DNA of 64,000 bases, taken from the NCBI RefSeq assembly GCF_001306135.1, contig NZ_LGKP01000004.1, positions 124,001-188,000 of the forward strand, read 5' to 3'. Numbering within the stretch: position 1 is the stretch's first letter; each line of letters starts with the position of its first letter. The translations under genes were made by a program, and so were the position numbers. Below the pieces are notes generated by a model. The model was not told the DNA's origin. It did not search any database and worked only from the letters and a program-made list of their open reading frames with translations. Positions 1,258-63,319 of this stretch are shown here, one piece after another. Origin of the DNA: Herpetosiphon geysericola. Its GTDB lineage: Bacteria > Chloroflexota > Chloroflexia > Chloroflexales > Herpetosiphonaceae.

Positions 1258-1375
1258 ATTTGGTTTAATCAGCACTTATAGCGAGATTGGAGCGGTAAAT
1301 CCTACCTAGCCCCAAGCTCAGCACAAGAAACGAGCGAATAAGTGGCAAAAAGCTCTCGTGCCACCTGCGGATGCT

Positions 1376-1404
1376 GTTTAAATCCTCTCTGCGGATCGAT
1401 TATT
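1376..1404 (-). repeat. Degenerate repeat at the left end of the array
   Basis: GTTT at 1376 is followed by AATCCTCTCTGCGGATCGAT and TATTG, a repeat with three changed bases near its start and one base lost near its end. Only 23 bases separate it from the first full repeat, shorter than a normal spacer. Decayed terminal repeats are typical of the end far from the leader, which agrees with the minus-strand orientation proposed for the array. Confidence 0.75.
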
Positions 1405-4400
1405 GCGCTTGCTTCGCTTGGTCAATCGTTTCAGTATCCTCTCTGCGGATCGATTAATTGAAATATCATTGGCAATTCAACGAAAGTGAGGTGCTGTATG
1501 TTTCAGTATCCTCTCTGCGGATCGATTAATTGAAATCTCGCTTTATTGATTCTTGGCAAACAACACAGAATAGTTTCAGTATCCTCTCTGCGGATCGATT
1601 AATTGAAATATTCGCGCCACTGAATCGCTGTCATAAGCGCGTCTGGTTTCAGTATCCTCTCTGCGGATCGATTAATTGAAATTTTTCTCCTAGTTAGCCC
1701 CGTCCCTGCCTGCGACGGTTTCAGTATCCTCTCTGCGGATCGAATAATTGAAATCCCCAACCCGCCGCCCCGCAGCCGACGACCATCCAGCGTTTCAGTA
1801 TCCTCTCTGCGGATCGATTAATTGAAATGATGGCATCGTGCGCAAGGTCAGCGAGGCGGCCACGTTTCAGTATCCTCTCTGCGGATCGAATAATTGAAAT
1901 CATACTCGTTCTGATTCCGTTGATGCTTTGCTGAAGTTTCAGTATCCTCTCTGCGGATCGATTAATTGAAATACATACAGTAGCTCGCCAGTGCGATTTG
2001 CCAAATGTTTCAGTATTCTCTCTGCGGATCGAATAATTGAAATGTATCATGTTCCCCTTGACTCATATGAATTGTTCCAAGTTTCAGTATCCTCTCTGCG
2101 GATCGAATAATTGAAATTTGATCAGCAAATCCTTCGTTGTTGGTATAAATGATGTTTCAGTATCCTCTCTGCGGATCGAATAATTGAAATCGCCGCCGAT
2201 GTTTATAGATTTCAATTTGTCCACAGTTTCAGTACCTCTCTGCGGATCGAATAATTGAAATATCGCGCCGAAGATCAACGCCGCCTAGCCGAACTAGTTT
2301 CAGTATCCTCTCTGCGGATCGAATAATTGAATTTACCTGAAGATGAACCAACCGGATTTGTTTACATTTCGTTTCAGTATCCTCTCTGCGGATCGAATAA
2401 TTGAAATTTGCCACGGTTGGGGGCAAGGTTGGGGCGATGCGCGTTTCAGTATCCTCTCTGCGGATCGAATAATTGAAATTACCTTCAGCCTGATTTGCAC
2501 TATGAAACACAATTGTTTCAGTATCCTCTCTGCGGATCGAATAATTGAAATTTGCCCGCGCACGTCATCAAGCGGCTGATCGTCGTTTCAGTATCCTCTC
2601 TGCGGATCGAATAATTGAAATTGAATGGCTATGCTGATTCGCTGTTTCGCCCAACGTGTTTCAGTATCCTCTCTGCGGATCGATTAATTGAAATGACCGA
2701 TCCGCCCTATGGCACAACTAATCTTGCATGTTTCAGTATCCTCTCTGCGGATCGATTAATTGAAATCCTTTGAACCAATTCGACCGTTCCCATGGTTCTG
2801 CGGTTTCAGTATCCTCTCTGCGGATCGATTAATTGAAATAACGAAGGCATTCAAGCCACGCTGCAATGCCGTGGTTGTTTCAGTATCCTCTCTGCGGATC
2901 GAATAATTGAAATGGCATTCGTTCGCCAGCCTACAAATTCGACCTTGAAGTGTTTCAGTATCCTCTCTGCGGATCGAATAATTGAAATACCCAGCACGCC
3001 ACCACGCATTGATTTAGATCAAGCGCGTTTCAGTATCCTCTCTGCGGATCGATTAATTGAAATTCCTTAGTGGATGAGCGCCGCTTCTTTGTTTAAAACG
3101 TTTCAGTATCCTCTCTGCGGATCGAATAATTGAAATATCGCAACCCATCCGATCCGCTCGGAAGAAAAAAGTTTCAGTATCCTCTCTGCGGATCGATTAA
3201 TTGAAATCCTGGTATCCCGAGGTCAACCCGCTCGATGCGGTAGGTTTCAGTATCCTCTCTGCGGATCGATTAATTGAAAGCGGCGGATTGCGCTCGAACT
3301 GTGGTACACCGATCAGGTTTCAGTATCCTCTCTGCGGATCGATTAATTGAAAGTCAGTTGGCCCAACGGTCACACTCACCATGAGCGTGTTTCAGTATCC
3401 TCTCTGCGGATCGATTAATTGAAAGCTACACCATGATAGGCCTCTCATTGCACTCCTAAGTTTCAGTATCCTCTCTGCGGATCGATTAATTGAAAGCCGA
3501 TGAATCAGAAATCAAGGGAAAAAATCGAAATAGAGTTTCAGTATCCTCTCTGCGGATCGATTAATTGAAAGAATGGCCGTCTATGCCGCGCTGGCAGTGC
3601 GATCAAGTTTCAGTATCCTCTCTGCGGATCGATTAATTGAAAGGCCACACTCGCGATCGCGGCAGATTCAGGAGTTATTGTTTCAGTATCCTCTCTGCGG
3701 ATCGATTAATTGAAAGTTCAATCCACACCAGCGACCAGGCGATTATGGTGTTTCAGTATCCTCTCTGCGGATCGATTAATTGAAAGACAATGCGCAGGAA
3801 TCGCTTATTTTTGGCGGTGACAGTTTCAGTATCCTCTCTGCGGATCGATTAATTGAAAGGATCGCGTTGCAGATCGGCGATGGCATCAGCCATGGTTTCA
3901 GTATCCTCTCTGCGGATCGATTAATTGAAAGCCATCCTCAAAACTTGCAGCAACGCCCCGCTTGCGAAGTTTCAGTATCCTCTCTGCGGATCGATTAATT
4001 GAAAGGGAATCGATTCAATCAAGAGATCGGCGAGTTCGTCGGTTTCAGTATCCTCTCTGCGGATCGATTAATTGAAAGAGAATTTGCCCCAACCCATCCC
4101 TTGGCCCAACAATGTTTCAGTATCCTCTCTGCGGATCGATTAATTGAAAGCCAATCACTTTCCAGTACCAACCCCGCCCATCCAACGTTTCAGTATCCTC
4201 TCTGCGGATCGATTAATTGAAAGATCATCATGCTGTCTATCGCACGTTGCGCCTAGAGTTTCAGTATCCTCTCTGCGGATCGATTAATTGAAAGCGCTAT
4301 AGTCATAAGAGAAACGAAAAGCTAATTCGTTGTTTCAGTATCCTCTCTGCGGATCGATTAATTGAAAGCTACGGCCAACCAGCCCAAAAAGGCTAGTTGA

Positions 4401-7166
4401 CAGGTTTCAGTATCCTCTCTGCGGATCGAATAATTGAAATTAGTAGGTTCTGACCGCTGCCTTGGCCCATCCGGCGTTTCAGTATCCTCTCTGCGGATCG
4501 AATAATTGAAATAACTGAGTCCACCGCAGCGAGTGGAATATTACAATCGTTTCAGTATCCTCTATGCGGATCGAATAATTGAAATTTAGTAGCTTCTTTG
4601 AAGCGGGTGGCACACCACCGGGTTTCAGTATCCTCTATGCGGATCGAATAATTGAAATTTGCACTAAGGCGTGCAACCGATGGCCTTGGGCGTTTCAGTA
4701 TCCTCTCTGCGGATCGAATAATTGAAATTTACTGACCCGCCGTATGGTGTAACGAAAATGGCCTGTTTCAGTATCCTCTATGCGGATCGATTAATTGAAA
4801 GTTGAATATCAGCGAAGGCATTGGATACTTCGCAAATGTTTCAGTATCCTCTCTGCGGATCGATTAATTGAAAGTTTTAAGTAACGGCGCTTCATCATGC
4901 GAATATTGATGTTTCAGTATCCTCTCTGCGGATCGATTAATTGAAAGAACCAAGCTTTCCGAGAAGCTTCAGCGTGAAGTACGTTTCAGTATCCTCTCTG
5001 CGGATCGATTAATTGAAAGGTTGATGAATGCGCCGATGTCGGTAGCGCTGCCGTAGTTTCAGTATCCTCTCTGCGGATCGATTAATTGAAAGAGTATCTT
5101 GCATGAGGTCATCACAAAAATCAAATTCGTTTCAGTATCCTCTCTGCGGATCGATTAATTGAAAGTTGGTCAATCTTCAGTCGTGTGTTGTTTACCAAGT
5201 TGTTTCAGTATCCTCTCTGCGGATCGATTAATTGAAAGCATTGATGCGATGCAAACCATTCACCGTGGCGTAACAGGTTTCAGTATCCTCTCTGCGGATC
5301 GATTAATTGAAAGGTTCGATTCATCGTATTGTTATCTTGAAAAGCATGTTTCAGTATCCTCTCTGCGGATCGATTAATTGAAAGAGTTTGTTTTCATCCA
5401 TCACAAAGCCCATGTCATAGTTTCAGTATCCTCTCTGCGGATCGATTAATTGAAAGCTTTACCTTATCATCGCCATGGCCAAAGCCGAGCAGTTTCAGTA
5501 TCCTCTCTGCGGATCGATTAATTGAAATTTGAAGAAATCGACTGGCCGTTTACCGAGGAACGTTTCAGTATCCTCTATGCGGATCGATTAATTGAAATAT
5601 AACAGCCCCCACGGTCGGCCAAACCTTTGGGTGCGTTTCAGTATCCTCTCTGCGGATCGATTAATTGAAATTGCTGCGTCATGGCGCGTGCGCATCACCC
5701 ACCGGAATGTTTCAGTATCCTCTATGCGGATCGATTAATTGAAATCACCCGCATCGAGCGTGGCACCACGAAATACTGGTGTTTCAGTATCCTCTATGCG
5801 GATCGATTAATTGAAATAACACGATGGGCTTGGCATGATCAAGTAGCTGAGTTTCAGTATCCTCTATGCGGATCGATTAATTGAAATAGGTTCTGAAGCA
5901 ACGAAAGTAGCAGACCTATTAGCGTTTCAGTATCCTCTCTGCGGATCGATTAATTGAAATATCCAGTCGATGACAGCCCGACTGAATCAAATGAACGTTT
6001 CAGTATCCTCTCTGCGGATCGATTAATTGAAATGAAAAAGCAGGTCAGGTTGTACAGCCAATTAAAGATGGTTTCAGTATCCTCTCTGCGGATCGATTAA
6101 TTGAAATACGCAGGCGCAGGATTAGCAGGCTTAGTTTCAACAGGTTTCAGTATCCTCTCTGCGGATCGATTAATTGAAATTGCGTGGCTTTGCAGAAACG
6201 CGCATCGCCATGGTCTGTTTCAGTATCCTCTCTGCGGATCGATTAATTGAAATGACCGTCTTTTGGAGCTTCATCCTGAGGATATAACTGTTTCAGTATC
6301 CTCTCTGCGGATCGATTAATTGAAATTGATCGATAGCCAATACACCACCGCTGATCCGATTTGTTTCAGTATCCTCTCTGCGGATCGATTAATTGAAATG
6401 CATGCAAGGCTTCGCTAGCACTGGTGTAGCCACGTTTCAGTATCCTCTCTGCGGATCGATTAATTGAAATATAAATAACTCAGATCAACCGACAGACGAC
6501 CTAGAAGTTTCAGTATCCTCTATGCGGATCGATTAATTGAAATTGCGGGTGTTGTTTTTGAATTTTGGCGACCTGTGTTTCAGTATCCTCTCTGCGGATC
6601 GATTAATTGAAATTGTTGGCATCAATGCCCATGGACTTGGCTAAGGCGGTTTCAGTATCCTCTATGCGGATCGATTAATTGAAATATGCGATGAAGAATA
6701 GCGTTAATGCTGCTGTGTTGTTTCAGTATCCTCTCTGCGGATCGATTAATTGAAATCCAAAACGACGAAAACAATCGCCATTTTGGCGATGAAGTTTCAG
6801 TATCCTCTATGCGGATCGAATAATTGAAATCCACAATAAACCACGCGAAACCCGCCAAGCCATGTTTCAGTATCCTCTATGCGGATCGAATAATTGAAAT
6901 TGACAAACTGGATCGCGCGATTGTTTCAATGATGTGTTTCAGTATCCTCTCTGCGGATCGAATAATTGAAATTTGATAAACTGATCTCGCCGCTGTCGTT
7001 GTAGGCCAGTTTCAGTATCCTCTATGCGGATCGAATAATTGAAATCTGGTCGCGCCGGCTCGCGCAGCGGATAGCGACCTGTTTCAGTATCCTCTATGCG
7101 GATCGAATAATTGAAATAACCGTAAATATTTTCTAGTTATTTTGATCAGCGGAGTTTCAGTATCCT

Positions 7167-8120
7167 CTATGCGGATCGAATAATTGAAATAACTTGCAAG
7201 GTCGATGGCGACAACCAACGCGGCGTTGTTTCAGTATCCTCTATGCGGATCACGGCCTGCCAAATAAGATTACCAGACGCATCTTCATGAATTGTCTGCG
7301 AAGGATGCCAACGGGTCTCAAGAACCCGTTGGCGCACATGGCGTTGGAATCGAACGCTAATCGTTATCGGCTGCTCATCTTGAGAGAACCAAATTCCCCA
7401 AGCTCCCTCAAATAGTTGAATCGGATCGAATGTCGAATGAACATCAAAATGTTCATCTTCGATAACAGGAACAGAAATAATCCGTTCGATTTTACGCGCA
7501 CGAAGCGATTGAGCTTGTTCAGAAAATCCCACCACATATGTTGAACCACCAAGTGCAATTGGTTCTATCATATAAGGATGAAATACTTCGTTGAAGGCTT
7601 GTATACCCTGTAATGGCTGATAACGCCAACTTATTTTTCGCCCTGATAACCAAGCCTCACCAATTTTTTCTAAGGCCCGTTGGGCCTTACTTTTCAGTGA
7701 CGGTAATCTTGTACGCTGGTGCGCGGTTTGTTGTAGGATATGATCCCCTGCAAGGCTAGCAACTCCTCGGCTAAGAGTCAGACCCAACTTATGCATTACT
7801 TCAAGCCCATGTAAGTTTGATTGTTGAAGATGCTGTTGCATCAAACGTAGGGCAATCATGGTAATAAGGCTTTCATCACGCGATAAACGAACATACATCA
7901 AATAGCTAGCGCGGTCAATGTATACTTGACGATCTTTAGTTCGCCGAATTGGCACATCATCAAGCTCTAATTCTACCAACCATAGCCGAATTGTAGACCG
8001 ATTACAATTAAAAATAGTAGCCAATTCTGATTGACGAATAGGAGTTCGACGTTCAAGAAGGAACCGCTCTAACTGACGAACCCCCATGATCTTGGTATAA
8101 TCATGGTTTTTCTTAGGCAT
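7167..8120 (-). CDS. WYL-domain transcription regulator, C-terminus replaced by CRISPR sequence
   Basis: The N-terminal ~75 residues form a helix-turn-helix domain (RQSELATIFNCNRSTIRLWL). A WYL domain follows (ISWRYQPL, then EPIALGGSTYVVGF and RARKIERI), then the start of the WCX-type C-terminal region (RVLETRWHPSQTIHEDASG). Native sequence ends about residue 289 (LIWQAV). Residues 290-317 are encoded by the truncated repeat, one spacer and part of the next repeat, whose CTATGCGG variant supplies the stop codon. Family members usually continue for roughly 30-40 more residues, so the protein is probably truncated. WYL proteins are known regulators of CRISPR loci, for example the repressor Sll7009 in Synechocystis, so a regulatory link is plausible. 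If the array is transcribed from the minus strand, this gene lies directly upstream of it. Confidence 0.88.
   Translation of the reverse strand: MPKKNHDYTKIMGVRQLERFLLERRTPIRQSELATIFNCNRSTIRLWLVELELDDVPIRRTKDRQVYIDRASYLMYVRLSRDESLITMIALRLMQQHLQQSNLHGLEVMHKLGLTLSRGVASLAGDHILQQTAHQRTRLPSLKSKAQRALEKIGEAWLSGRKISWRYQPLQGIQAFNEVFHPYMIEPIALGGSTYVVGFSEQAQSLRARKIERIISVPVIEDEHFDVHSTFDPIQLFEGAWGIWFSQDEQPITISVRFQRHVRQRVLETRWHPSQTIHEDASGNLIWQAVIRIEDTETTPRWLSPSTLQVISIIRSA
7228..7251 (-). repeat. Truncated last repeat, fused to the WYL gene
   Basis: The first 24 bases of the plus-strand repeat (GTTTCAGTATCC to GCGGATC) are intact, and sequence then switches to the coding region of the WYL regulator. The missing part is the last 13 bases (GATTAATTGAAAT type). 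Read on the minus strand, the remnant keeps the GGAT/ATCC stem and the terminal CTGAAAC, so it could still provide the 5' tag of the adjoining spacer's crRNA. Confidence 0.9.
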
Positions 8121-8181
8121 CTGTTTAGTCTCCTACTACAACGACGATAGCTTAGCACAGCAATAGCAAAAAAACAGTAAT

Positions 8182-8400
8182 TTAATGAGGGGCAATTTTA
8201 AAGATTGCTAATCGATTTCGCTCATCCTGCCAAAGCAAGAAGCCCTTATCTTCAAGCCGTTGAAGATCTTCCATAACCATTTTTGCTGGATAGTCGAGTA
8301 ATCGGGCTATTTCTGCCTGAGTTAATCCATTAGGGGATTGGTTGAGTAAGGTGATAATAGCAGTTTCACGGGTCTTCGAATCTGGATAGCGTCGAAACAT
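8182..8400 (-). CDS. Small winged-helix DNA-binding protein (72 aa)
   Basis: The protein fits a single winged helix-turn-helix domain: TRETAIITLLNQSPNGLTQ and AEIARLLDYPAKMVMEDLQR form the helices and KGFLLWQDERNRLAIFKI the wing. AGGAGG lies just upstream of the ATG. It is 61 bases upstream of the WYL gene on the same strand, so the two are probably co-transcribed and may together control the CRISPR array. No partner or ligand domain is present. The upstream stretch 8401-8616 holds its promoter but no box that I would call with confidence. Confidence 0.75.
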   Translation of the reverse strand: MFRRYPDSKTRETAIITLLNQSPNGLTQAEIARLLDYPAKMVMEDLQRLEDKGFLLWQDERNRLAIFKIAPH

Positions 8401-8616
8401 TGATCGTTCCTCCTGAAATTACAGTTACTAAGTGATAATTTCAAGATACCGATCTAATGTTGCAAAACATACAACATCGTGTTCGACTTCATTCCACACT
8501 CATTGCCTATTGATTGAATATCCTCAACGTAGTTGAAAAAACTAGTCAAATGTCGCTTAAGCCATGAACTTGGCCAAACCAAGCGGCTGAATTACGCGCA
8601 TTGACCTAAAAAAACA

Positions 8617-8647
8617 CGTGCTCCACTAAATCGCTTAGTGGAGCACG
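8617..8647 (-). terminator. Rho-independent terminator of the membrane protein gene
   Basis: CGTGCTCCACTAA (8617-8629) pairs with TTAGTGGAGCACG (8635-8647), a perfect 13-bp stem with a 5-nt loop. On the minus strand a run of T residues follows the stem within two bases. It ends the transcript of the gene at 8676-9056. Confidence 0.85.
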
Positions 8648-8675
8648 CGGGCAATGGTAGTTGGTTGGCGGTAGT

Positions 8676-9056
8676 TTAGAGGGCCAACAAGGCGGTGGTG
8701 CGGGTGCGCAAGGCAATTCCCATCAAAAAGAAGCCGAGCAAGCCATAAATTAATGCTTCAAAGCGATTATCACGGCCACGGGTGAAGGCAAAGGTGGCCG
8801 GAATCGAAATAACCGCGACTGCTGCATACAAAATATGAAACAGATCACGCTGCGGGCGAGCGCCCCCAATGTAGAGCAAAATCCCCACAATTGCCTCAAC
8901 GATCACAAGGCCTTCGCCAATGACCAACGCGCCCCAAAAATCACCTGTTATCGAGCGCCCAGTAAAAAAGATAAAACAACCCCAAATGCCAATAATGATC
9001 ATAAAGAGCATAAAGGCAATTTGCAGCCGATCGTGTAAGATATATAAGATGTTCAT
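8676..9056 (-). CDS. Small integral membrane protein, function unknown (126 aa)
   Basis: Four hydrophobic segments are visible, at about residues 13-31, 42-63, 71-90 and 98-117, joined by short charged loops such as ARPQRD and TRGRDNR. There is no signal peptide beyond the first segment and no catalytic motif. I do not recognise a named family. It has its own terminator. The preceding intergenic stretch (9057-9185) holds only G/C-skewed low-complexity runs of the type seen elsewhere in this window, so it is probably a monocistronic gene. Confidence 0.7.
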   Translation of the reverse strand: MNILYILHDRLQIAFMLFMIIIGIWGCFIFFTGRSITGDFWGALVIGEGLVIVEAIVGILLYIGGARPQRDLFHILYAAVAVISIPATFAFTRGRDNRFEALIYGLLGFFLMGIALRTRTTALLAL

Positions 9057-9185
9057 TGAAAGTCCTTATTCTATGTGGGGGTTGGTAATCGGGGGTCGAG
9101 GATCGGGGTTGAGGGTTTAGAGTCATCAAATCATCAGTTGTGATTAATAACCAACCCCCAAACCCCAATAACCAATCCCCAGTTC

Positions 9186-9530
9186 CTACCCTGCCAATTT
9201 CTGGCGCAAGGCAGCAATTTCGCGCTCAATATCGGCCACGTAATTATCGAGCCAGCCAGGAGCCGACGCGCCCAATTGATTTTGGCGCATGCGCAAGCGG
9301 CGCAATTCGCGCTCGTTTTGGCGCAATTGCTCGCTCAGCGACGGTGCATATGGCTCGGGATTTGGCTCAGCCAAGGCTGCATCGGGCACTTCATCCAAAT
9401 ATTGCACCACTAACTCGCTAACCAAGTCGCTGACTTCCATCGAACGCGCACGACACAACCGCTCCAACCGATCCCGTTGTTCGGCAGGTAAGATAACTCG
9501 ACAGGGCAAAGTAAAGAAACCGTCGCTCAT
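9186..9530 (-). CDS. Coiled-coil protein with a ribbon-helix-helix-like N-terminus (114 aa)
   Basis: The start at 9530 is chosen because GGAGG lies seven bases upstream and it gives an ATGA overlap with the stop of the preceding gene. Residues 1-50 (RVILPAEQRDRLERLCRARS, then VSDLVSELVVQYLDE) resemble a ribbon-helix-helix DNA-binding fold: a short strand, then two helices. Residues 65-114 form a charged coiled coil (LRQNERELRRLRMRQNQL and IEREIAALRQKLAG). It is translationally coupled to the O-antigen-ligase-like gene. It may be a small regulator or scaffold; nothing more specific can be read. Confidence 0.65.
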   Translation of the reverse strand: MSDGFFTLPCRVILPAEQRDRLERLCRARSMEVSDLVSELVVQYLDEVPDAALAEPNPEPYAPSLSEQLRQNERELRRLRMRQNQLGASAPGWLDNYVADIEREIAALRQKLAG

Positions 9531-11611: not shown

Positions 11612-11785
11612 ACACAACAATCTTTCCTATGGTCTATACCACATTATCGTGCTGCTATCACACTCCAAGCAAGCAGAGCGCCAATCAGTGTGGGAGCAAA
11701 CATCCTGCGGGTTAATCCTGCTTAGAGGGGTTATCGCCAGCTACGAAGTAGGCTAGGATTAGCAACGGTTCATAGCTGCTGAGCC

Positions 11786-12175: not shown

Positions 12176-12294
12176 CGTCAACCTCGAACCAATGAACCGC
12201 GCTTATCCTACCCGTGATCAGCGAATGCTGCAACTGATGGCCCCGTTTTTGCCATCGTATTCGCTTGACAGTCCCTAGTTCGGAGCCTTTTCGC

Positions 12295-12699: not shown

Positions 12700-12715
12700 T
12701 TAAAAAATGTTAGGC

Positions 12716-12745
12716 AAGGGGATGCGAGCATGCTCGCATCCCCTT
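12716..12745 (+). terminator. Terminator after the STAS-like gene
   Basis: A perfect 30-base palindrome: AAGGGGATGCGAGCA (12716-12730) directly followed by its complement (12731-12745), then TTG. It can terminate on either strand and separates the STAS-like gene from the DUF2254 gene. Confidence 0.8.
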
Positions 12746-12853
12746 TTGTGGTTAATAATAGCTACAAAACTTGCCAAAACCCACAATTTGCTGCAAGATC
12801 AGCACGGCCCAAGGCTCAGCCGCACGCTGTTTATTCCAAAAACGAGAGGCTTT

Positions 12854-54549: not shown

Positions 54550-54764
54550 GATTGTATCAATCAAAACCCCACAGCATCAAAGTTCAACTATATACCTATC
54601 TACAATAGACGCTTAATGTAAGCCAGCTGCAAAAACGCAAGCTTAATTGCATCAATTTAAACCATGAGCGTTAAATCGAACGGATATTCGTCTTTCTAGC
54701 GCACATATATGGACTGCCCATCAGCTAAAGTAAGTGCATCGTGAGTGTTCTCCAAGGAGGTTGT

Positions 54765-56948
54765 ATGAGTGATCCCCCAGTCATAGGGGCATTGAAGAGT
54801 ATGACAAACTCGGTCGAGGCTTGGTCAACTACGCCACTAGAATCAATCTTCAACCAAATTAGCCCATCAACCGAGCCAACTTCAGCGCCCTATTTTCTGC
54901 AAGCGCAACGCTTTAGCCTAAGCGAAACAGCGCTTTTTCCAGTCAGCGAACGGCCACAGGTTCCCGCCGATTTACATACCGAATTCAGGCAAGCGCTTGA
55001 CCAGTGTAGTAAGGAGCCAAGCACTCATTTAGCCCAAATGCTGAGCATCTTTCAGGATTATGCATGGGCTGTTGGCTACCAGTCAAATGCTGATGAAGCC
55101 ATTGATCCGGTTGTGTCGCTCTACGATTATGCCCGCACCAAGGCTTCTTTGGCCGCAGCAGGCAAGCAAGCGTTATTGGTCGGCGGCGATATTTCCGGCG
55201 TGCAAGATTTTATCTACACCATCGCGGCCAGTCGGGCCGCCAAAAGCCTGCGTGGGCGCTCGTTCTATTTGCAAATGCTCACCGAAGCGCTTGCTGGCTG
55301 GGTTTTGGCCCAAGCGGGTATGCCAAGCAGCAATTTGCTCTATAGCGGCGGCGGGCGTTTTTATGCAATCGTGCCAGCTGCATGCGCGGCGCACATCGCT
55401 CAATGGCGCCGCGAGCTTGGCCAATTTCTGCTCAACGTGCACGATGGCGAATTGTACGTTGCCTTGGGTGCGGCCACGATCGTCGATGCAAATCACGATT
55501 TTGGGGCCTTGTTCCGCGCAGTCAACGATCATGTGACAGCTGATAAACGCCGGCGCTTTGCAACCCTTGATTCGCAAACAATTCAAGCCAGCCTGTTTAC
55601 CCCGCGCGGCCATCGCGGCAACGAGGAAGATCGCTGCGCAACGTGTGGTTATATGGGGCCAACTCAGCTCTTTGTTACCGAGCAGGTTGATCCAGGCGAA
55701 ACGGCAGGCAAGCTTTGTCTGCTCTGCGAAAGCACGATTAAGCTTGGCTTTAGCTTGCACGATGCCCAATTCATTTGCATAAGTCGCCCAGCTTCCAAGC
55801 TTAGCACCGTCACGAGACGCGCCTCATCAAAGGATATTTTGGCGGCCTTGGGCACCCAGGTCGAGATTTGTTTCGATCAGAAGGAATTGCGCAGCTATCT
55901 CAATCGACATCCCGATCAATTAATCCATGTGCAAATCATTCGCCCATTTACTGGCGATCTGAAGCTGTTAACTGAGCTGCGTAGCCAATATCGCCAGCAT
56001 GTTTTCAGCTTTCGCCCAATCGTCAATGTTACGCCCAAAAAGAATGGCGCGGTCAAATCGTTTGATCAGCTAGCAGACGCTAGTCGTGGGATTAAGCGCT
56101 TTGGGGTGCTGCGCATGGATGTTGATGATCTTGGCGATATTTTCGGCTATAGCCTTGCCAAATCGTCGCTGGCTCGCATTTCAAGCCTCAGCGCCGCCTT
56201 CTCGCGCTTTTTCGAAGGCTGGGTTGGCGAAATCTGCCGCGACCAACAAATCGTTACGTCAATCTACCAAGCCGATCAAGCCCCAAGCGAACAAATCTAC
56301 AGTGTCTATTCTGGTGGCGATGATCTGTTTGTGGTTGGCGGCTGGGATGTGCTGCCCCACATCGCGAATCGCATTCAACACGATTTACAACGCTATACCG
56401 GCTATAACCGATTAATCCATGTTTCAGCAGGATTGAGCCTGCATACCAAGAAGTTTCCCTTATATCAAGCGGCCAAACTCGCCCACAATGCGCTTGATAA
56501 TGCCAAGGATGCCCCGCTACGCCAGGAAATCCGCAAAAATGCCTTGGAATTTCTTGATCAAACGATTGCATGGGAAGCCTATCCCGCACTCGTCGATTGG
56601 CATCAACGCTTGTGGCACCTCTATCAGGCCGAACAGGGCATGGTGCGTTCACTGTTGCAGGTGTTGATGGAACTGTATAGCCAATATCAGGAACATAGCC
56701 AAAAACACCAAAAATCAGGCAATCATCAAACGGCTTATGGTCCATGGATTTGGCGCGGTAAATATCAACTAGCACGGATTCGCGACCGCCACCCCAACGA
56801 TCAAGAACTAAAAGATTTATTAGTCGATATGGATACTTCTTTATTCTCCAACTTCGATAAGCCGCATCGCATCAGCCTGCGCACCATCGAGCAACTTGGC
56901 CTCGCCGCCCGTTGGACACAATTATTAATTCGTGAGCAAGGAGATTAA
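54765..56948 (+). CDS. cas10: Type III-A CRISPR effector Cas10/Csm1 without HD domain (727 aa)
   Basis: AAGGAGG precedes the ATG at 54765. The Palm1 domain begins LLVGGDISGVQDFIYTIAAS; zinc-ribbon cysteines CATC and CLLC lie at about residues 290-325; Palm2 carries the cyclase motif SGGDDLF (G517-D520), so cyclic oligoadenylate synthesis from ATP upon target RNA binding should be intact. The usual N-terminal HD nuclease, with its His-Asp pair, is absent: the protein starts directly at the region that follows HD in other Csm1 proteins, and no HD-coding sequence lies upstream. So ssDNA cleavage is probably lacking and immunity would rest on RNA cleavage and signalling. It heads the operon csm2-csm3-csm4-csm5-csm6-csm6-cas6. 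Confidence 0.95.
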   Translation: MSDPPVIGALKSMTNSVEAWSTTPLESIFNQISPSTEPTSAPYFLQAQRFSLSETALFPVSERPQVPADLHTEFRQALDQCSKEPSTHLAQMLSIFQDYAWAVGYQSNADEAIDPVVSLYDYARTKASLAAAGKQALLVGGDISGVQDFIYTIAASRAAKSLRGRSFYLQMLTEALAGWVLAQAGMPSSNLLYSGGGRFYAIVPAACAAHIAQWRRELGQFLLNVHDGELYVALGAATIVDANHDFGALFRAVNDHVTADKRRRFATLDSQTIQASLFTPRGHRGNEEDRCATCGYMGPTQLFVTEQVDPGETAGKLCLLCESTIKLGFSLHDAQFICISRPASKLSTVTRRASSKDILAALGTQVEICFDQKELRSYLNRHPDQLIHVQIIRPFTGDLKLLTELRSQYRQHVFSFRPIVNVTPKKNGAVKSFDQLADASRGIKRFGVLRMDVDDLGDIFGYSLAKSSLARISSLSAAFSRFFEGWVGEICRDQQIVTSIYQADQAPSEQIYSVYSGGDDLFVVGGWDVLPHIANRIQHDLQRYTGYNRLIHVSAGLSLHTKKFPLYQAAKLAHNALDNAKDAPLRQEIRKNALEFLDQTIAWEAYPALVDWHQRLWHLYQAEQGMVRSLLQVLMELYSQYQEHSQKHQKSGNHQTAYGPWIWRGKYQLARIRDRHPNDQELKDLLVDMDTSLFSNFDKPHRISLRTIEQLGLAARWTQLLIREQGD

Positions 56949-56950
56949 TT

Positions 56951-57394
56951 ATGCCTGAGATTAGCGAACAAGACCGCGAAGCAATTATTAATAGCGATGA
57001 TATTGAATTATTAGTCAAAGCTGCCGAAAAAATTGGCAAAAAGCTAGCAGAAGTTAATAAGCTTACTGCAAGTCAGATTCGCGGCATTTTTGGCACAGTC
57101 CGCCGAATCGAGATGGATTGGGTCATGCCTAGTTTGCAGCAGCAACGCACCGAAACTGTACGGCGGGCCCAACGTGAATTTGCCTTGCTCCAGCCACGCT
57201 TGGCCTACCAAGCCAAACGCGAGCGCGGTGGCGCAGTTCAAGCCCTCAGCGACGAATTAACTCCAGCAATTAAGTTGGTGATGAAAGCTAAAAACCTTGG
57301 AGCTGAGATTTACTACCAACGCTTCCGTAACTTTGTCGATTTCTTCGAAGCAATCTTGGCCTATCATCGCGCATTTGGCGGCAAAAATAATTAA
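56951..57394 (+). CDS. csm2: Csm2, small subunit of the type III-A effector (147 aa)
   Basis: The family core is clear: KLTASQIRGIFGTVRRIEMD, then FALLQPRLAYQAKRERGGAV and the end RFRNFVDFFEAILAYHRAFG. Csm2 lines the inside of the crRNA/target duplex along the Csm3 filament. The ATG lies two bases after the cas10 stop, with AAGGAG inside the end of cas10. All-alpha and soluble, normal length. Confidence 0.95.
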   Translation: MPEISEQDREAIINSDDIELLVKAAEKIGKKLAEVNKLTASQIRGIFGTVRRIEMDWVMPSLQQQRTETVRRAQREFALLQPRLAYQAKRERGGAVQALSDELTPAIKLVMKAKNLGAEIYYQRFRNFVDFFEAILAYHRAFGGKNN

Positions 57395-57441
57395 TTCCAT
57401 TAATAAGTAATTAACTCTCTTGATAAGTGAGGATACAATCT

Positions 57442-58209
57442 ATGTCAGATAAAACAAATCCACTCAAAATTGTTGGCCGCATTTTCGTCAATTTTGAAAT
57501 TCATGCCTTAACTGGCTTACATATCGGCGGCGCAGCAGGCACGTTGGCCATTGGTAACGTCGATAATCCAGTCATTCGCAATCCCTTGACCAAAGAACCT
57601 TATGTGCCAGGTTCATCGTTACGCGGCAAAATGCGCTCACAGTTAGAAAAGGCTTGCGGTTTGATCCAGAACTTCCCAATTGGTAAAGGGGTTTCTATTC
57701 ATTCAGCGACAACAAAAGAAGAGTATAAAGCAAGCCCTCTTTTGCATATTTTTGGTATTTCTGCCTCAGAATTTGCGACTGCCCCAACTCGCCTAATTGT
57801 GCGCGATGCAGCTTTGAATAAGAAATCTCGCGAGGATCTCGATAATGCCCGCACCGATTTGCCCTATACCGAAGTTAAATGGGAAGCAGCCATCGATCGC
57901 GTAACCTCAGCGGCCACTCCACGCCAGCAAGAGCGGGTTCCGGCTGGGGCAATTTTCGACGGTGCACTGACCTTCACGCTCTACAACGATCAAGATACCA
58001 AGCTCTTCAACACCGTCATTCGCGGGCTTGAGTTGGTTGAAGAAGATTATTTGGGCGGCCAAGGTGCGCGTGGCAGCGGCCAAGTTGCCTTCAAAAATAT
58101 CGAGATCAGCTTCAATCACCACGAACAAGCAGTGCTAAGCAAACACAAGCTTGAATCGTTGGCCGAGCTGCGGGCGTTATGGGCGGCTCAAGGCTATGCT
58201 GATAAATAA
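57442..58209 (+). CDS. csm3: Csm3, backbone subunit and target-RNA nuclease (255 aa)
   Basis: The Cas7-family RAMP starts LTGLHIGGAAG, then NVDNPVIRNP (D41 corresponds to the catalytic Asp of Csm3), and YVPGSSLRGKMRSQLEKACG. The C-terminal glycine-rich loop is DYLGGQGARGSGQVAFK. Several copies form the filament that binds crRNA and cuts target RNA at 6-nt intervals. The start at ATG 57442 has GAGGA upstream, 47 bases after csm2. Catalytic residue retained, so RNA slicing is expected. Confidence 0.96.
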   Translation: MSDKTNPLKIVGRIFVNFEIHALTGLHIGGAAGTLAIGNVDNPVIRNPLTKEPYVPGSSLRGKMRSQLEKACGLIQNFPIGKGVSIHSATTKEEYKASPLLHIFGISASEFATAPTRLIVRDAALNKKSREDLDNARTDLPYTEVKWEAAIDRVTSAATPRQQERVPAGAIFDGALTFTLYNDQDTKLFNTVIRGLELVEEDYLGGQGARGSGQVAFKNIEISFNHHEQAVLSKHKLESLAELRALWAAQGYADK

Positions 58210-58221
58210 GAGGAGCGCAGC

Positions 58222-59247
58222 ATGGAATTTAATCTAATTCGGCTTCAGCCCCAAGGCGCATTTCACTTTGGCATGCAAGGCATCGACATGGAAATTGTCA
58301 GCGAAACCTGCCCCTCGGATACGCTGTATGCAGCGCTGTTTTGGCAGGCTTTGCAACAAAACCATCGCTGGGCTGAGGCTCCCGAAAATCCACCATTCAC
58401 GATCTCATCGTGCTTTCCATATGTTGATGGCATTCAACTCTTGCCAGTGCCGATGCTGCCGCCAAAACTCAACGATGAACAAAAGCCAGGTGAGCGTAAA
58501 CAATTCAAAAAAGTGCGCTTTATTTCCAGCGAGATTTTCATTAATCTGCTGGCAGGAAACCACTCGTTACGCGATTATTTTCAGCCAGCTAATGGCGTGA
58601 GCTTACAACATGGCAGCGTGTTGGTTAGCACAACTGAATTTAATGCCAGCCAACGTGATGCAGAAAAGCCACTTTGGAAAATCGATTCGATTCCGCATGT
58701 GGCGGTTGATCGTTGGAGCAACGCCACGACCTATTATGAAACTGGCCAAGTGCGTTTTGCCCCAGGCTGTGGCTTGGCCATTTTGGCGCTTGGCGATATG
58801 CAGCAACTGATGCAGCTCTTGGGGCAAGTTGGCATCGATGGGCTTGGCGGGCGGCGCAGCAAAGGCGTTGGTCAATTTGAGCCAGCATTACAAACCGAGA
58901 CCCTCAATTTGCCAGCAGCTACCAGCGATTCGGTGATTGTGCTTTCGCGCTATTTGCCAAGTGCTGCCGAGCTTGCAGCAGGCGTTTTGGCCGAGCCAGC
59001 AGCCTATAGCCTAGAGGATGTGACTGGCTGGATGTATTCGCCAGCAGTCAAAGCCCAGCGCCGCAAAGCAATTTGGATGATTGGGGTTGGCTCGCGCTTG
59101 AATCGCGCAGGGCTAGCGCATTCGATTGTTGGCACAAGCGTCGATGTAGCCCCAACCTACGACAATCCAAGCGCTGGGGTCAAGCATCGAGTTTGGCGGC
59201 ATGGGCTAGCGCTCACGGTTGGCTGTAGCCCAGGAGACGAGCAATGA
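58222..59247 (+). CDS. csm4: Csm4, Cas5-like subunit (341 aa)
   Basis: The start LIRLQPQGAFHFG, with SDTLYAALFWQAL, is the Csm4/Cas5-group signature. The glycine-rich loop GIDGLGGRRSKGVGQFE and the C-terminal HRVWRHGLALTVG also match. It caps the 5' tag end of the crRNA and contacts Cas10. AGAGGAGCG precedes the ATG 12 bases after csm3. It overlaps csm5 by four bases. Confidence 0.94.
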   Translation: MEFNLIRLQPQGAFHFGMQGIDMEIVSETCPSDTLYAALFWQALQQNHRWAEAPENPPFTISSCFPYVDGIQLLPVPMLPPKLNDEQKPGERKQFKKVRFISSEIFINLLAGNHSLRDYFQPANGVSLQHGSVLVSTTEFNASQRDAEKPLWKIDSIPHVAVDRWSNATTYYETGQVRFAPGCGLAILALGDMQQLMQLLGQVGIDGLGGRRSKGVGQFEPALQTETLNLPAATSDSVIVLSRYLPSAAELAAGVLAEPAAYSLEDVTGWMYSPAVKAQRRKAIWMIGVGSRLNRAGLAHSIVGTSVDVAPTYDNPSAGVKHRVWRHGLALTVGCSPGDEQ

Positions 59248-60329
59248 GTGTCCATTCACTAACCATTGAAACCCTCTCGCCAGTGCATATCGGCGCTGGA
59301 GGGCCAGATTTACGGCGCAATATCGATTTCGCAATCTTCGGCAAAACGCTGTATATGCTTAACATCGATGCGGTACTCGAAGCGATTTTGCCCGAAAATC
59401 CCAACGATCGCTACTACCAACAAATCTTGAGTACTCCCGACGTAGGCAGCTTTTTATCAGAAGAATTACTTAGGAATAACCCTAAACTCTATCATTATCA
59501 AACAAGTGAGTTCAAACCAAAAGCTGATATTCTGCGTCCCGTAATCAAACATTGGACTCATTCACCCTATATTCCAGGTAGCAGCCTCAAGGGTGCATTA
59601 CGCACTGCTTGGGTTCGTCAACAATATCAACAACATAACCTCAATTTAGATGTACGCCAATTAGAAGGTAAGTATGCAGCATTTAGAAAGCAAGAAGCCC
59701 GCTTGCTTAGCCCAAAAGCACCACGCCCAGCCCTAGTTCCCAACTATGATCTCTTTCGGGCAATCCAAATCAGCGATAGCCAACCATCTCCCGATAATTC
59801 ACTCACACTTTACAATTCGTTGGTATTTCCTGCCTCTAATAAAGGGATTCCAATTGTATTAGAAGCAATTAAACCGCGTATTACCTTGCAAGCACGGATT
59901 AAATTTGATGACTATATCTTAAAAACCCAAGCCAAGCATTTTGGGGTGCACGAGCAAGGATTTAATTCCGAAGCATTAAAACAAGCTTGGCGCACGCAAG
60001 GAATCGCCCGCATTCAACAAGAATTGACCTTCTGGACCAATCGTCGCGAAGGCGAGCATGTTCAGCAATTCTTTAGCCAGCTTGAACAACAGGCTAACGC
60101 TGCCCCTGACAATTGCTTTTTCATCGATATTGGCTGGGGCACAGGCTGGAAGAGCAAAACGCTTGGCGACGTAATCAAAACACCGCAACTATCTCAACTC
60201 ATTCATCAGTATGAGCTTAGTCGTAAACACAATGTAGGAGATAGATTTCCCAAGACACGGCGAGCTGTTTGTGATTTAAATGATCACTTAAAAAGACCAT
60301 TCGGCTGGATCAAAGTGACGCTAAATTAG
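59244..60329 (+). CDS. csm5: Csm5, Cas7-like end subunit (361 aa)
   Basis: The start LTIETLSPVHIGAGG and the motif SPYIPGSSLKGALRTAW are diagnostic for Csm5. A C-terminal region rich in aromatic residues follows. Csm5 sits at the 3' end of crRNA and helps recruit trimming nucleases. ATGA overlap with csm4 indicates translational coupling. After it, a 179-base gap containing a dispersed repeat copy (60371-60435) separates the core effector genes from csm6. Confidence 0.94.
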   Translation: MSVHSLTIETLSPVHIGAGGPDLRRNIDFAIFGKTLYMLNIDAVLEAILPENPNDRYYQQILSTPDVGSFLSEELLRNNPKLYHYQTSEFKPKADILRPVIKHWTHSPYIPGSSLKGALRTAWVRQQYQQHNLNLDVRQLEGKYAAFRKQEARLLSPKAPRPALVPNYDLFRAIQISDSQPSPDNSLTLYNSLVFPASNKGIPIVLEAIKPRITLQARIKFDDYILKTQAKHFGVHEQGFNSEALKQAWRTQGIARIQQELTFWTNRREGEHVQQFFSQLEQQANAAPDNCFFIDIGWGTGWKSKTLGDVIKTPQLSQLIHQYELSRKHNVGDRFPKTRRAVCDLNDHLKRPFGWIKVTLN

Positions 60330-60370
60330 GGGTCGCTCATCCCATACCAACAATCCACAACCTGAATTAT

Positions 60371-60435
60371 GCGGGAGTGCAGGGGGATGAAAACTCCCTG
60401 CATCTCCCGCCTTGAGGCGAGACGGAAGGGTGGAG
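60371..60435. repeat. Dispersed intergenic repeat, copy D, inside the Csm operon
   Basis: The copy has GCAGGGGGATG and CTCCCTGC arms and the CCCGCC...GGCGAGACGGAAGGGTGG block, inverted relative to copy A. Its two stem-loops lie between csm5 and csm6 and could attenuate transcription into the csm6-cas6 half of the operon. Confidence 0.75.
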
Positions 60436-60508
60436 ATCGAAAGACCACCTGGTAAGAATTAAGAATCAGGGATTAGAACCGCGTTTGAGTTTGAATCAGG
60501 AGCAGCAA

Positions 60509-61951
60509 ATGCGACGAATTGCTTTATGTAATGTTGGCAATAGCGATGTAGCAGTGAACGGTGTAATCATCCGCCCACCCCGTCCAGCAGGCGAACAGCA
60601 TTGGCAAACCTATAGCGAGCATGCGTTCAGTGCACCAATTATTGATGCCTATGCTCGCTATTTTGAACAACGGCAAATTGTGCTTGATTGTGTGATTTTA
60701 TTTGATACCGATCAGGCAGAAAATCCCACCACGAGCATCACCGATCGCTATGGCGTTAGTTTGCGGGATAAAGATACTTGCTGGTTTGGTAAAATTCTAG
60801 AGCGCTATCTTCAAGAGCGTTGGAGCCATGTGATTCGTTCAGTTGAACGGCGCACAATTCATAATGTCAATCCAAGTTTATACGATGATGCGATGCACGC
60901 ATTTGGTCAACAATTGAGCGCCATTAATCATCAAGCAGATACCTATTATTATGTACTGGCTGCTGGGGGCACGCAAGCTTTCAATAATGCGTTGCAATTT
61001 AAGGCAATTGCTCGTTTTCGCGAAAATTGTTATGTCTTGTATAAATCCGAGCATGATTCTGCTCCCTACTCATTAAATATTCCAAAGCAATTGCTTGATT
61101 CATTTAATATTTCAACCGCAATTCAACTTATTCGCCAGCATAATTTTCTAGGGGCAATTACCCTGCTCGAAGGCTCGGTTGATAAAAATATTATTGAAAT
61201 TTTGTGGTATGCCAAATATCGCGAAGATTTTAATTTTGATTTAGCTGCGCAAATTATAGAGCGAATTCAATTCCATGTTGATGGAATATTACGCGATTTA
61301 ATTCGTTCGATTCAGCATAACGCCTATCAGATTAATCAGACTGATCTAAAATTCCTCTTGGTTGAGCTTTATTATAATGCCCAGATTGCTTATGATAACG
61401 GACGCTATGCCGATTTTCTTGGACGTGTGTTTCGCTTTCAAGAGACAGTTTTGCGTTATGTCGTCGAAACTAGCTTTAACATCTCAACTGATTATAGTAA
61501 AGCCAAGAAAGCAGCAAGTAGCACCCAATTTACCAAATTACTAGCCGATGATCCGGCATTATTTGAGCATCTTGAGCAAGCGACAATTGATGGCAATAAG
61601 CTTGATTATAGCCATTTTTCAGTGCCAGTCTTGGTTGCAATGCTCAATTTTCTTACCAAGCAGCAAGCACAAACGTATATTTCGCAACGACAAGCAGGAA
61701 TCTATATCGGTTTGCGTGAGCAGATTAATAAATTGAGCAATCTCTCTGAAATGCGCAATCAAAGTGTTATTGCTCACGGCTTTGAAGGTGTTTCCAAAGA
61801 GCAAATTCTTGAAAAACTTAAGCTTAACCAAGACCAAACCCCATTAGATCTGCTGCGCACAATTTTAGCCAAAATTGAGATTTCTGTTCCTCCATCACCA
61901 TTTCAGCAGATTCAAGCCGTATTAATTGAAAAACTCTATAGCTTAATCTAG
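60509..61951 (+). CDS. csm6: Csm6-like CARF-HEPN ribonuclease, first copy (480 aa)
   Basis: The N-terminal CARF domain starts IALCNVGNSDV and has the ligand-site motif LAAGGTQAFNNAL (residues ~150-162), which binds cyclic oligoadenylate. A helical middle leads to a C-terminal HEPN domain with EMRNQSVIAHGFEG, in which R416 and H423 give an Rx6H active site. On activation by the Cas10 signal it should cut RNA non-specifically. The ATG at 60509 has AGGAG upstream; the longer TTG frame is less likely. It is followed after six bases by a second Csm6 of similar layout. Confidence 0.9.
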   Translation: MRRIALCNVGNSDVAVNGVIIRPPRPAGEQHWQTYSEHAFSAPIIDAYARYFEQRQIVLDCVILFDTDQAENPTTSITDRYGVSLRDKDTCWFGKILERYLQERWSHVIRSVERRTIHNVNPSLYDDAMHAFGQQLSAINHQADTYYYVLAAGGTQAFNNALQFKAIARFRENCYVLYKSEHDSAPYSLNIPKQLLDSFNISTAIQLIRQHNFLGAITLLEGSVDKNIIEILWYAKYREDFNFDLAAQIIERIQFHVDGILRDLIRSIQHNAYQINQTDLKFLLVELYYNAQIAYDNGRYADFLGRVFRFQETVLRYVVETSFNISTDYSKAKKAASSTQFTKLLADDPALFEHLEQATIDGNKLDYSHFSVPVLVAMLNFLTKQQAQTYISQRQAGIYIGLREQINKLSNLSEMRNQSVIAHGFEGVSKEQILEKLKLNQDQTPLDLLRTILAKIEISVPPSPFQQIQAVLIEKLYSLI

Positions 61952-61957
61952 GAGCAA

Positions 61958-63319
61958 ATGATGAGTCGATTATTAATTTGCAATATTGGCAATCGTGATA
62001 TTAAGGTGCCAGCAGGAACGTTTCCCGCTGATATAGACGATAATCATCGAGCAAAAATTAGCTATCTGCGTGAATATAAAGCCAAAATCAAAGATTCAAT
62101 TCAAATAACGATGATTACAAAAATTATCGATTATCTTGAGCATGATTCGCTAGATTATATTTTATTATTTGGCACCCAACAAGCGAATTCAGCCTATCAA
62201 CATACTGATACTTTGGCTGACGCAGAGCTGATCGGTGAATTATTGGTTGAACGCTGGAATTTTCGGCCTGAACAAATTTTAGTCCATGCGCTTTCGGCCA
62301 ACCCAACCCACCAAAACGAGCTAATTCGCTTTTACGAACCAGTGCTGGCAGCCTACGACCAGCAACTTCAGCCAAGCCAGGTTATCTTGGAGGTAACTGG
62401 TGGCACGCCAGCAATGTCAACTGCTTTACAATTAACGGGCACTGAAATTTTTCAAGAGCGCGCCTTGCCCGTCTATATCGCCCCCGATAGTGCGCTGCCG
62501 CAACCAATCTCGATTGGGCGGCGCATTTTGGGTGGCCCTTTGCGTAAAGTGATTCAGGCCAATTTAGCGACCTTTCAATATCATGCTGCGCTCGATAGTT
62601 GGCGCTTGTACCGGCCTTATTTCACCGATCTACAGAGCGAAAGTCGCGCCAAAGTTATTGAGGGCATGCTGGCCCATGCCGCCGCGCGGGTCAATCTCGA
62701 TGTGCCGCAGGCGCTTTTAGCAATTCGCGGCTTGGTTGGCTTGGCCGATGGAGTGCACGATGCGAAAATTCATCGCTTGTACAATGCGCTCACGCCGCTA
62801 TCGCATGAAAATGCGTTGGCTGAAGTGTTAGCATTGGCAGAAATTCGCCTGAAAACCAATAGTTATGCCGATTTTCTGACTCAATTGGTACGTTATATTG
62901 AAAATAGTTTGCGTTTGGTTTGTTTGCGCTTAAACATTCCATTTATTAATCGACAAGGCCACGCTGATCCGCATGGAGCCAAAGTTGATGCAGCTTGGCT
63001 GCGCCAACAGCGAATTGAGAAGATTAGCGTTGGTCAGGCAGGCTTACAAAAATTATTGAGTAGTTATGCACCACAGGATGCAAACGTGCAGCTTGTGCTC
63101 AAATTAGCCAAAACATGTCAACCCTTGATTGAATTACGCAACGAAATTACCCATAGCTTGGGTGGCGTTTCGCAAGCCCAAATCGAACAAGCCTATGGCG
63201 CGACTGTAAGCACGATCTTGAACAATATTCAGCAAAGCTACCAACAATTAACACAACGTTCGTTAGAGCAAAATCCCTATGATGTCATTAATCAATGGGT
63301 TATTGAGCTATTAGATTAA
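61958..63319 (+). CDS. csm6: Csm6-like CARF-HEPN ribonuclease, second copy (453 aa)
   Basis: The CARF domain starts LLICNIGNRDI and has EVTGGTPAMSTAL (145-157), the cyclic oligoadenylate site. The HEPN active site is ELRNEITHSLGG with R394 and H399 (Rx4H, against Rx6H in the first copy). Apart from motifs and order, the two proteins are strongly diverged, so they may respond to different ring sizes of cyclic oligoadenylate or form a heteromer. AGGAGC precedes a double ATG at 61958/61961. Six bases separate it from the first copy, 23 from cas6. Confidence 0.9.
   Translation: MMSRLLICNIGNRDIKVPAGTFPADIDDNHRAKISYLREYKAKIKDSIQITMITKIIDYLEHDSLDYILLFGTQQANSAYQHTDTLADAELIGELLVERWNFRPEQILVHALSANPTHQNELIRFYEPVLAAYDQQLQPSQVILEVTGGTPAMSTALQLTGTEIFQERALPVYIAPDSALPQPISIGRRILGGPLRKVIQANLATFQYHAALDSWRLYRPYFTDLQSESRAKVIEGMLAHAAARVNLDVPQALLAIRGLVGLADGVHDAKIHRLYNALTPLSHENALAEVLALAEIRLKTNSYADFLTQLVRYIENSLRLVCLRLNIPFINRQGHADPHGAKVDAAWLRQQRIEKISVGQAGLQKLLSSYAPQDANVQLVLKLAKTCQPLIELRNEITHSLGGVSQAQIEQAYGATVSTILNNIQQSYQQLTQRSLEQNPYDVINQWVIELLD

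What the first reader, a model, noticed from the sequence alone, without database searches (positions are those of the whole stretch)
7167..8120. CRISPR array fused in frame to a WYL regulator gene, truncating the protein
Seen: the last repeat is cut after 24 bases and continues directly into WYL coding sequence; the last ~28 codons of the frame are repeat and spacer sequence, with the stop supplied by a repeat variant. Known: WYL proteins regulate CRISPR loci (for example Sll7009). Inference: a deletion removed the WYL C-terminus and, if the array is read from the minus strand, its leader. The gene's promoter would then drive a chimeric mRNA-crRNA transcript, and spacer acquisition at that end would be frozen.
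Basis: partly seen in the sequence, partly recalled or inferred. Interest (0 to 1): 0.78.

Follow-up and report, generated by a model that had tools for sequence, protein, structure and literature searches.

The report
CRISPR array orphaned by cas-operon deletion
A predatory soil bacterium (Herpetosiphon) has lost in one ~9.5-kb deletion all the protein genes of one of its CRISPR immune systems, leaving the memory bank spliced onto a broken regulator gene; several of its stored records match elements the bacterium now carries, so the loss may have ended self-attack, but this is a known kind of event rather than a new device.

Summary
The junction is real. The array (82 repeat copies, 1375-7251) ends at 7251 after 24 nt of a repeat. 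From 7252 the sequence is the 3' part of a minus-strand WYL gene, which keeps 289 codons and gains a 27-residue array-encoded tail.

In the sister species Herpetosiphon llansteffanensis (G004) both flanks of the locus are conserved. Between the WYL gene and the array lies a complete type I-A operon (cas3-cas8a-cas7-cas5-cas6-cas1-cas2-cas4) plus leader. A ~9.5-kb deletion in the window genome removed all of it, and I found no copy elsewhere in the assembly.

Minus-strand orientation is now supported: protospacers have a 5' CC(C) PAM in 7 of 8 matched spacers. The full-length WYL protein has a WCX domain (251-326) that the truncation cuts at residue 290. "In frame" carries no meaning, because an array has no reading frame.

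Five spacers match DNA resident in the same genome, four with a CCC PAM. Loss of interference probably relieved or permitted autoimmunity. An intact III-A system 47 kb away could in principle reuse the array, but has its own repeat and Cas6. Verdict: well-documented deletion scar, known in kind; interest moderate to low.

The parts
1375..7251 (-). Type I-A-family CRISPR array, 82 repeat copies of 37 nt (crRNA sense ATTTCAATTAATCGATCCGCAGAGAGGATACTGAAAC), leader side at the right; now without cas genes or leader
   Evidence: orientation from 5' CCC PAM and from leader/cas position in relatives
7228..7251 (-). Truncated leader-proximal repeat: keeps the stem (GAUCC..GGAU) and the 8-nt ACTGAAAC handle, lacks the first 13 nt
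7251..7252 (.). Deletion junction; ~9.5 kb (cas3-cas8a-cas7-cas5-cas6-cas1-cas2-cas4-leader and the WYL 3' end) present here in G004 and G005 is missing
7252..8120 (-). Retained part of the WYL regulator gene (codons 1-289 plus 2 nt of codon 290 of a gene that has 353 codons in relatives)
7167..7251 (-). Array-derived 3' end of the chimeric ORF (27 residues plus TAG stop from a repeat variant)
8182..8400 (-). Small winged-HTH gene upstream of WYL, same strand, conserved in G004 and G005
8457..8477 (.). Putative operator ATGTTGC-N7-RCAACAT upstream of the HTH-WYL genes; perfect palindrome in G004 and G005, one base off in the window
3281..3316 (-). Spacer matching own contig C29 (2 mismatches, CCC PAM)
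3354..3388 (-). Spacer matching own contig C29 (3 mismatches, CCC PAM)
4513..4548 (-). Spacer matching own contig C44 (1 mismatch, CCC PAM)
4875..4910 (-). Spacer matching own contig C23 near 482 kb (4 mismatches, CCA)
5672..5708 (-). Spacer matching the tail tape-measure gene of an own prophage, contig C23 near 463 kb (2 mismatches, CCC PAM)
54741..63319 (+). Type III-A system of the same contig (Cas10, Csm2-5, two Csx1), continuing past the window end with Cas6, Cas1, Cas2 and its own array of a different repeat; the leading candidate in-trans user of the orphan array

Best explanation
The window holds the scar of a single deletion of about 9.5 kb in an ancestral type I-A CRISPR-Cas locus. 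That locus read, in transcription order on the minus strand, HTH - WYL - cas3 - cas8a - cas7 - cas5 - cas6 - cas1 - cas2 - cas4 - leader - array. The deletion ran from codon 290 of the WYL gene to nucleotide 24 (plus-strand count) of a leader-side repeat. It removed all eight cas genes, the leader and half of the WYL protein's WCX domain. The join used little or no homology: 0 nt against the G004 sequence, and at most ATC if the lost ancestral sequence resembled G005 there. What remains is an orphan I-A array with no interference, processing or acquisition genes of its own. Shown by tools: the ancestral arrangement, the breakpoints, the absence of the cas genes from the assembly, the orientation, the loss of WCX, and five spacers matching the bacterium's own resident DNA. 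Inferred: the truncated WYL protein is non-functional as a dimeric regulator; the array is now mostly inert; the loss was tolerated or favoured because it ended (or allowed) conflict between I-A spacers and resident prophages and mobile elements; and the event is recent, because the array repeats and the WYL frame have hardly decayed.
For: Full-length WYL orthologues (353 aa) in G004 (97% aa over the shared part) and G005 (83%). cas3-8a-7-5-6-1-2-4 lies between WYL and the array in G004, named by NCBIfam/PADLOC, Cas8a/Cas7a/Cas5a = I-A, with the same gene layout in G005. Homology to G004 resumes exactly at 7252 and runs on through the right flank; the left flank of the window array (436-1274) is orthologous to sequence left of G004's array on contig C115, so it is the same chromosomal locus. 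The 9.5-kb DNA finds nothing in the window's genome but gives long matches in G001, G002, G004 and G005; Cas3 protein 0 hits; only one cas1, that of III-A; no close Cas6. PAM: CC(C) on the 5' side in minus-strand sense for 7 of 8 matched spacers (chance about 4e-8). WCX (PF25583) at 251-326 in the full-length protein, not detected in the window protein. Self-matches: 5 of 8 matching spacers hit the own genome; for the cas-intact G005 array 0 of 6-7 (Fisher P about 0.03).
Against: One genome only; no second strain with the same junction was available. The assembly is a draft (46 contigs), so a cas operon lying wholly in an assembly gap is not formally excluded. Self-matches are imperfect (1-4 mismatches), and the control is one other array. 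The order of events (prophage arrival versus cas loss) cannot be told. The WYL part shows no obvious relaxation (window branch 2 non-synonymous and 7 synonymous changes), which says only that the loss is recent or the protein still constrained.
Confidence: 0.9

Rival explanations
1. Assembly artefact: the WYL gene and the array were joined wrongly inside a repeat, and the cas operon was left out.
For: Draft assembly (46 contigs); probably H. geysericola GC-42, an Illumina/SPAdes genome of 46 contigs (PMC4653791); the junction lies inside a repeat.
Against: The two sides share essentially no sequence at the join (0 nt overlap against G004), so no shared k-mer would drive a false join. A misjoin would leave the cas operon or leader on some other contig; searches with DNA and with Cas1/Cas3/Cas6 proteins find none, although estimated completeness is 100%.
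Confidence: 0.05
2. Working chimera: the cas-operon promoter upstream of the HTH gene now drives an HTH-WYL'-array transcript, and the III-A system or a stand-alone Cas6 processes and uses the crRNAs. Cutting at the truncated repeat would leave the WYL' message without a stop codon.
For: Genes run toward the array with no predicted intrinsic terminator between. The truncated repeat keeps its stem and 8-nt handle. Complete III-A system with its own Cas6 on the same contig and a solo cas6 at C3:130508. Type III using type I crRNAs is known in Marinomonas (PMC5576922), and spacer sharing between I-A and III is inferred widely (PMC8482600).
Against: I-A and III-A repeats differ (about 21 of 37 positions alike by eye) and each system has its own kind of Cas6. 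In Marinomonas the III-B machinery could not process I-F arrays without Cas6f (PMC5576922). No expression data.
Confidence: 0.12
3. Adaptive loss: resident prophages/mobile elements matched by I-A spacers made the system autoimmune, and the deletion was selected for that reason (a hypothesis about why the deletion spread; it does not compete with the deletion itself).
For: Five self-matching spacers, four with CCC PAM, one in a prophage tape-measure gene; none in the cas-intact G005 control. Precedent: P. aeruginosa lysogens with an imperfectly matched prophage delete CRISPR-cas regions (PMC11406979); S. epidermidis loses the locus under plasmid selection (PMC3784566).
Against: Small numbers; the elements may have arrived after the deletion; an anti-CRISPR could have tolerated the conflict beforehand.
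Confidence: 0.4

Closest known systems
Orphan (isolated, cas-less) CRISPR arrays, e.g. CRISPR05 of Marinomonas mediterranea (PMC5576922)
   Same: An intact-looking array of type I repeats without adjacent cas genes
   Different: Here no matching cas set was found elsewhere in the genome, and the deletion that made the orphan can be read at base resolution from sister genomes; one end is fused to a gene of the lost operon
CRISPR-cas deletions under self-targeting or plasmid selection (P. aeruginosa PA14/DMS3, PMC11406979; S. epidermidis, PMC3784566)
   Same: Loss of the cas region together with resident elements matched by spacers
   Different: Those are laboratory selections; this is a natural isolate, the array is kept and only cas genes and leader are lost, and no phage or IS sequence is seen at the junction
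WYL regulators next to CRISPR-Cas and other defence loci (Sll7009, BrxR; PMC4012209, PMC9122601)
   Same: HTH-WYL-WCX protein encoded at the head of a defence operon with an inverted repeat upstream
   Different: In the window the WCX (dimerization-type) domain is cut in half and replaced by an array-encoded tail
Type I-A CRISPR-Cas of Herpetosiphon llansteffanensis CA052B (contig NZ_PUBZ01000126.1 = G004:C124)
   Same: Same locus, same repeat family, same flanks, orthologous WYL and HTH genes
   Different: Has the whole cas operon and leader; its array (about 142 repeats) seems interrupted by an IS3-like element, and only one spacer resembles any in the window

Membership tests
Type I-A CRISPR-Cas system (functional) | Cas8a/Cas7/Cas5/Cas3 effector genes | tested here: not met
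   Absent from the assembly by DNA search of the operon and by Cas3 protein; present in G004
Type I-A CRISPR-Cas system (functional) | Leader plus cas1/cas2/cas4 next to the array | tested here: not met
   Leader/cas4 DNA not found (no control genome of its own; one search has controls); only a III-A cas1 in the genome
Array derived from a type I-A locus | Same repeat family at the same chromosomal locus as a I-A operon | tested here: met
   Repeat shared with G004/G005; both flanks orthologous to G004
Array derived from a type I-A locus | 5' CCN-type PAM | tested here: met
   CC(C) at the 5' flank for 7 of 8 matched spacers; CCN listed for I-A in PMC8482600
Orphan CRISPR array | Array with no adjacent cognate cas genes | tested here: met
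   Whole-genome searches find no I-A cas genes; nearest cas genes are the III-A set 47 kb away with a different repeat
WYL-WCX transcription factor | HTH + WYL domain | tested here: met
   PF13280 at 149-217 above cut-off; HTH_11 at 16-57 below cut-off
WYL-WCX transcription factor | WCX C-terminal domain | tested here: not met
   PF25583 251-326 in G004; not detected in the window protein at E<=0.1, sequence leaves the family at residue 290
crRNA donor to type III-A | crRNAs processed and bound by Csm | not testable with these tools
   Needs small-RNA or pull-down data

The most novel reading that the evidence does not exclude
After losing its own cas genes the array was captured by the promoter of the lost operon and is served by the III-A (or solo) Cas6, so that one message encodes a truncated WYL protein and feeds a frozen crRNA set to the III-A complex; Cas6 cutting at the truncated repeat removes the stop codon of that message.
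Probability: 0.1. Interest if true: 0.6.

Novelty: new member of a known kind. Interest (0 to 1): 0.36.

Why it matters
It gives a base-resolution, natural example of how an orphan CRISPR array arises: both flanks and the ancestral operon survive in a sister species. It links the loss to resident elements matched by the leftover spacers. That makes two open questions testable in an unmodified isolate: whether cas loss follows prophage conflict, and whether type III systems keep orphan type I arrays in use. As a mechanism it is not new.

Tried and rejected
Rfam scan of the window: nothing. Phage and plasmid collections: no spacer matches at megablast sensitivity; protospacers came only from genus genomes. 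A leader remnant in the window: none. IS or phage sequence at the junction: not seen by reading the sequence. AlphaFold model of the full-length WYL protein: mean pLDDT 59, too poor to use, so the WCX statement rests on Pfam. Reading the array on the plus strand: rejected by PAM side and by leader position in relatives. Translocation or inversion of the cas operon to elsewhere: rejected by searches. A named second strain with the junction: genome contigs gave only H. llansteffanensis. A first call of the variant-pattern script misread offsets and was redone.

Full report
Observation. The array in the window runs from 1375 (a degenerate copy) to 7251, 82 repeat copies of a 37-nt repeat with 33-38-nt spacers. 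The last copy matches the repeat for exactly 24 nt and then the sequence is WYL coding sequence. The minus-strand ORF 7167-8120 has 317 codons; 289 of them and two bases of the next are WYL, followed by 27 array-encoded residues and a TAG stop supplied by the CTCTATGCGG repeat variant. The three frames beyond the junction are open for 6, 27 and 2 codons, so 'in frame' carries no weight: some short tail was inevitable.

What was there before. The window is contig C2:124001-188000 of a Herpetosiphon draft genome of 6,140,412 bases in 46 contigs. This is probably H. geysericola GC-42: that genome is reported as 46 contigs, though 6.24 Mb (PMC4653791), and its reported identity to H. llansteffanense is 91% (PMC6210107), equal to the 91% seen at this locus. 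In G004 (H. llansteffanensis CA052B) and G005 the WYL orthologue is full length, 353 aa. Downstream of it G004 has cas3, cas8a, cas7, cas5, cas6, cas1, cas2, cas4, then a leader, then an array of the same repeat family; G005 has the same gene layout. The subtype is I-A by Cas8a, Cas7a and Cas5a matches. Window 7252-12755 and onward is collinear with the G004 right flank at about 91%. The window left of the array (436-1274) is orthologous to the left part of the fetched stretch of G004 contig C115, which carries about 98 more repeats of the same family; an IS3-like element appears to split the G004 array between C115 and C124 (read from the two contig ends). The same locus is therefore compared on both sides, and the difference is the missing cas operon.

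The deletion. If the first G004 repeat is taken as the left breakpoint, about 9,518 bases are missing. Any leader-proximal spacers lost with them cannot be counted. The join shows no overlap against the G004 sequence; if the lost ancestral bases resembled G005 (CAATCATAG), up to three bases (ATC) could have been shared. The 9.5-kb region finds no match in the window's genome while the same search gives long matches in G001, G002, G004 and G005. Cas3 protein is absent. The only cas1 is that of the III-A system. The nearest Cas6 in a search with the I-A Cas6 is 28% alike. This argues against translocation and against a simple misjoin.

Orientation. Eight spacers match places in the six genus genomes other than arrays. 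In minus-strand sense, seven of the eight have CC(C) directly 5' of the protospacer and no common motif on the 3' side; the chance of this is about 4e-8. A 5' CCN PAM is listed for type I-A (PMC8482600). This settles, as far as sequence can, that crRNAs were read from the minus strand and that the leader was at the right.

Effect on the regulator. Pfam places a WCX domain at 251-326 of the G004 protein. The window protein leaves the family at residue 290 and no WCX is detected. In BrxR the C-terminal domain is the dimerization domain and has the WCX core fold (PMC9122601), so the truncated protein probably cannot dimerize normally (inference). A palindrome ATGTTGC-N7-GCAACAT upstream of the HTH-WYL genes is perfect in G004 and G005 and one base off in the window; it may be their operator (inference).

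Age. In the WYL part the window branch has 2 non-synonymous and 7 synonymous changes, the G004 branch 4 and 11. Only three full-length repeats carry private changes (2007, 2226, 2297). Both suggest that the deletion is recent compared with the species split (inference; array turnover could also keep repeats clean).

Self-matches. Five spacers match the bacterium's own genome with 1-4 mismatches, four with a CCC PAM: two on contig C29 (3281-3316, 3354-3388), one on C44 (4513-4548), two on C23 (4875-4910 with CCA, 5672-5708). The last lies in the tape-measure gene of a prophage with terminase and major head genes. C29 encodes an FtsK/terminase-like ATPase and other phage- or mobile-element-like proteins. 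The array of the cas-intact G005 has hits in other genomes for six or seven spacers and none in G005 itself (Fisher P about 0.03). This fits relief from autoimmunity, for which there are laboratory precedents (PMC11406979, PMC3784566), but the numbers are small and the order of events is unknown.

Could the array still work? The same contig carries a complete III-A system with Cas10, Csm2-5, two Csx1, its own Cas6, Cas1, Cas2 and an array of at least 57 repeats of a different 37-nt sequence. The truncated repeat keeps a stem and the ACTGAAAC handle, and no minus-strand intrinsic terminator is predicted between the HTH gene and the array. Type III complexes can use type I crRNAs, but in Marinomonas this needed the type I Cas6 (PMC5576922), which is missing here. 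I therefore rate an inert array as most likely and in-trans use as possible.

Verdict. It is a clear natural example of a known process. Interest 0.36.

Noticed in passing
L088 (G002:C37) 3822-7015 and L089 (G001:C2) versus L051 3317-6513: G001 and G002 share the leader and cas4-cas2-cas1-cas6 module with G004 at 82-91% DNA identity, but the homology stops at the start of cas6; beyond it G002 has a I-B effector set (Cas8b/Cas7b/Cas5b/Cas3) and a WYL protein only 28% alike. This looks like an effector-module swap between I-A and I-B around a shared array and adaptation module.
   Followed up: partly
G000:C3:130508-131410 (L091 12484-13437) and relatives: A stand-alone cas6-like gene present in all six genus genomes; no CRISPR array within the 20 kb fetched around it in the window's genome.
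   Followed up: partly
window 579-767, 818-976, 1026-1199: Three tandem paralogous short ORFs (52-62 aa..EEEAAEI..DIVGCL.PI..TGCDD..) left of the array, next to an ABC-transporter end; they look like ribosomal peptide (RiPP) precursors, but no NCBIfam match.
   Followed up: partly
window 1428-7190: Repeats carry three biallelic positions whose alleles alternate along the array (for example CTT ATT CTT ATT near the leader end), more mosaic than simple copying of the leader-proximal repeat would give.
   Followed up: no
L110 13300-13554 and L051 1-180: The G004 array seems interrupted inside a repeat by an IS3-like element with TGATGTGGTC/GACCACATCA ends and a GAT duplication, seen as a contig break.
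   Followed up: partly
window 4332-4366 versus L110 6867: The only spacer resembling one in G004 differs by about two bases, suggesting independent capture from related targets rather than shared ancestry of spacers.
   Followed up: no
window 33371-41644: A 2,757-aa minus-strand ORF with DUF11-type repeats, probably a large surface protein.
   Followed up: no
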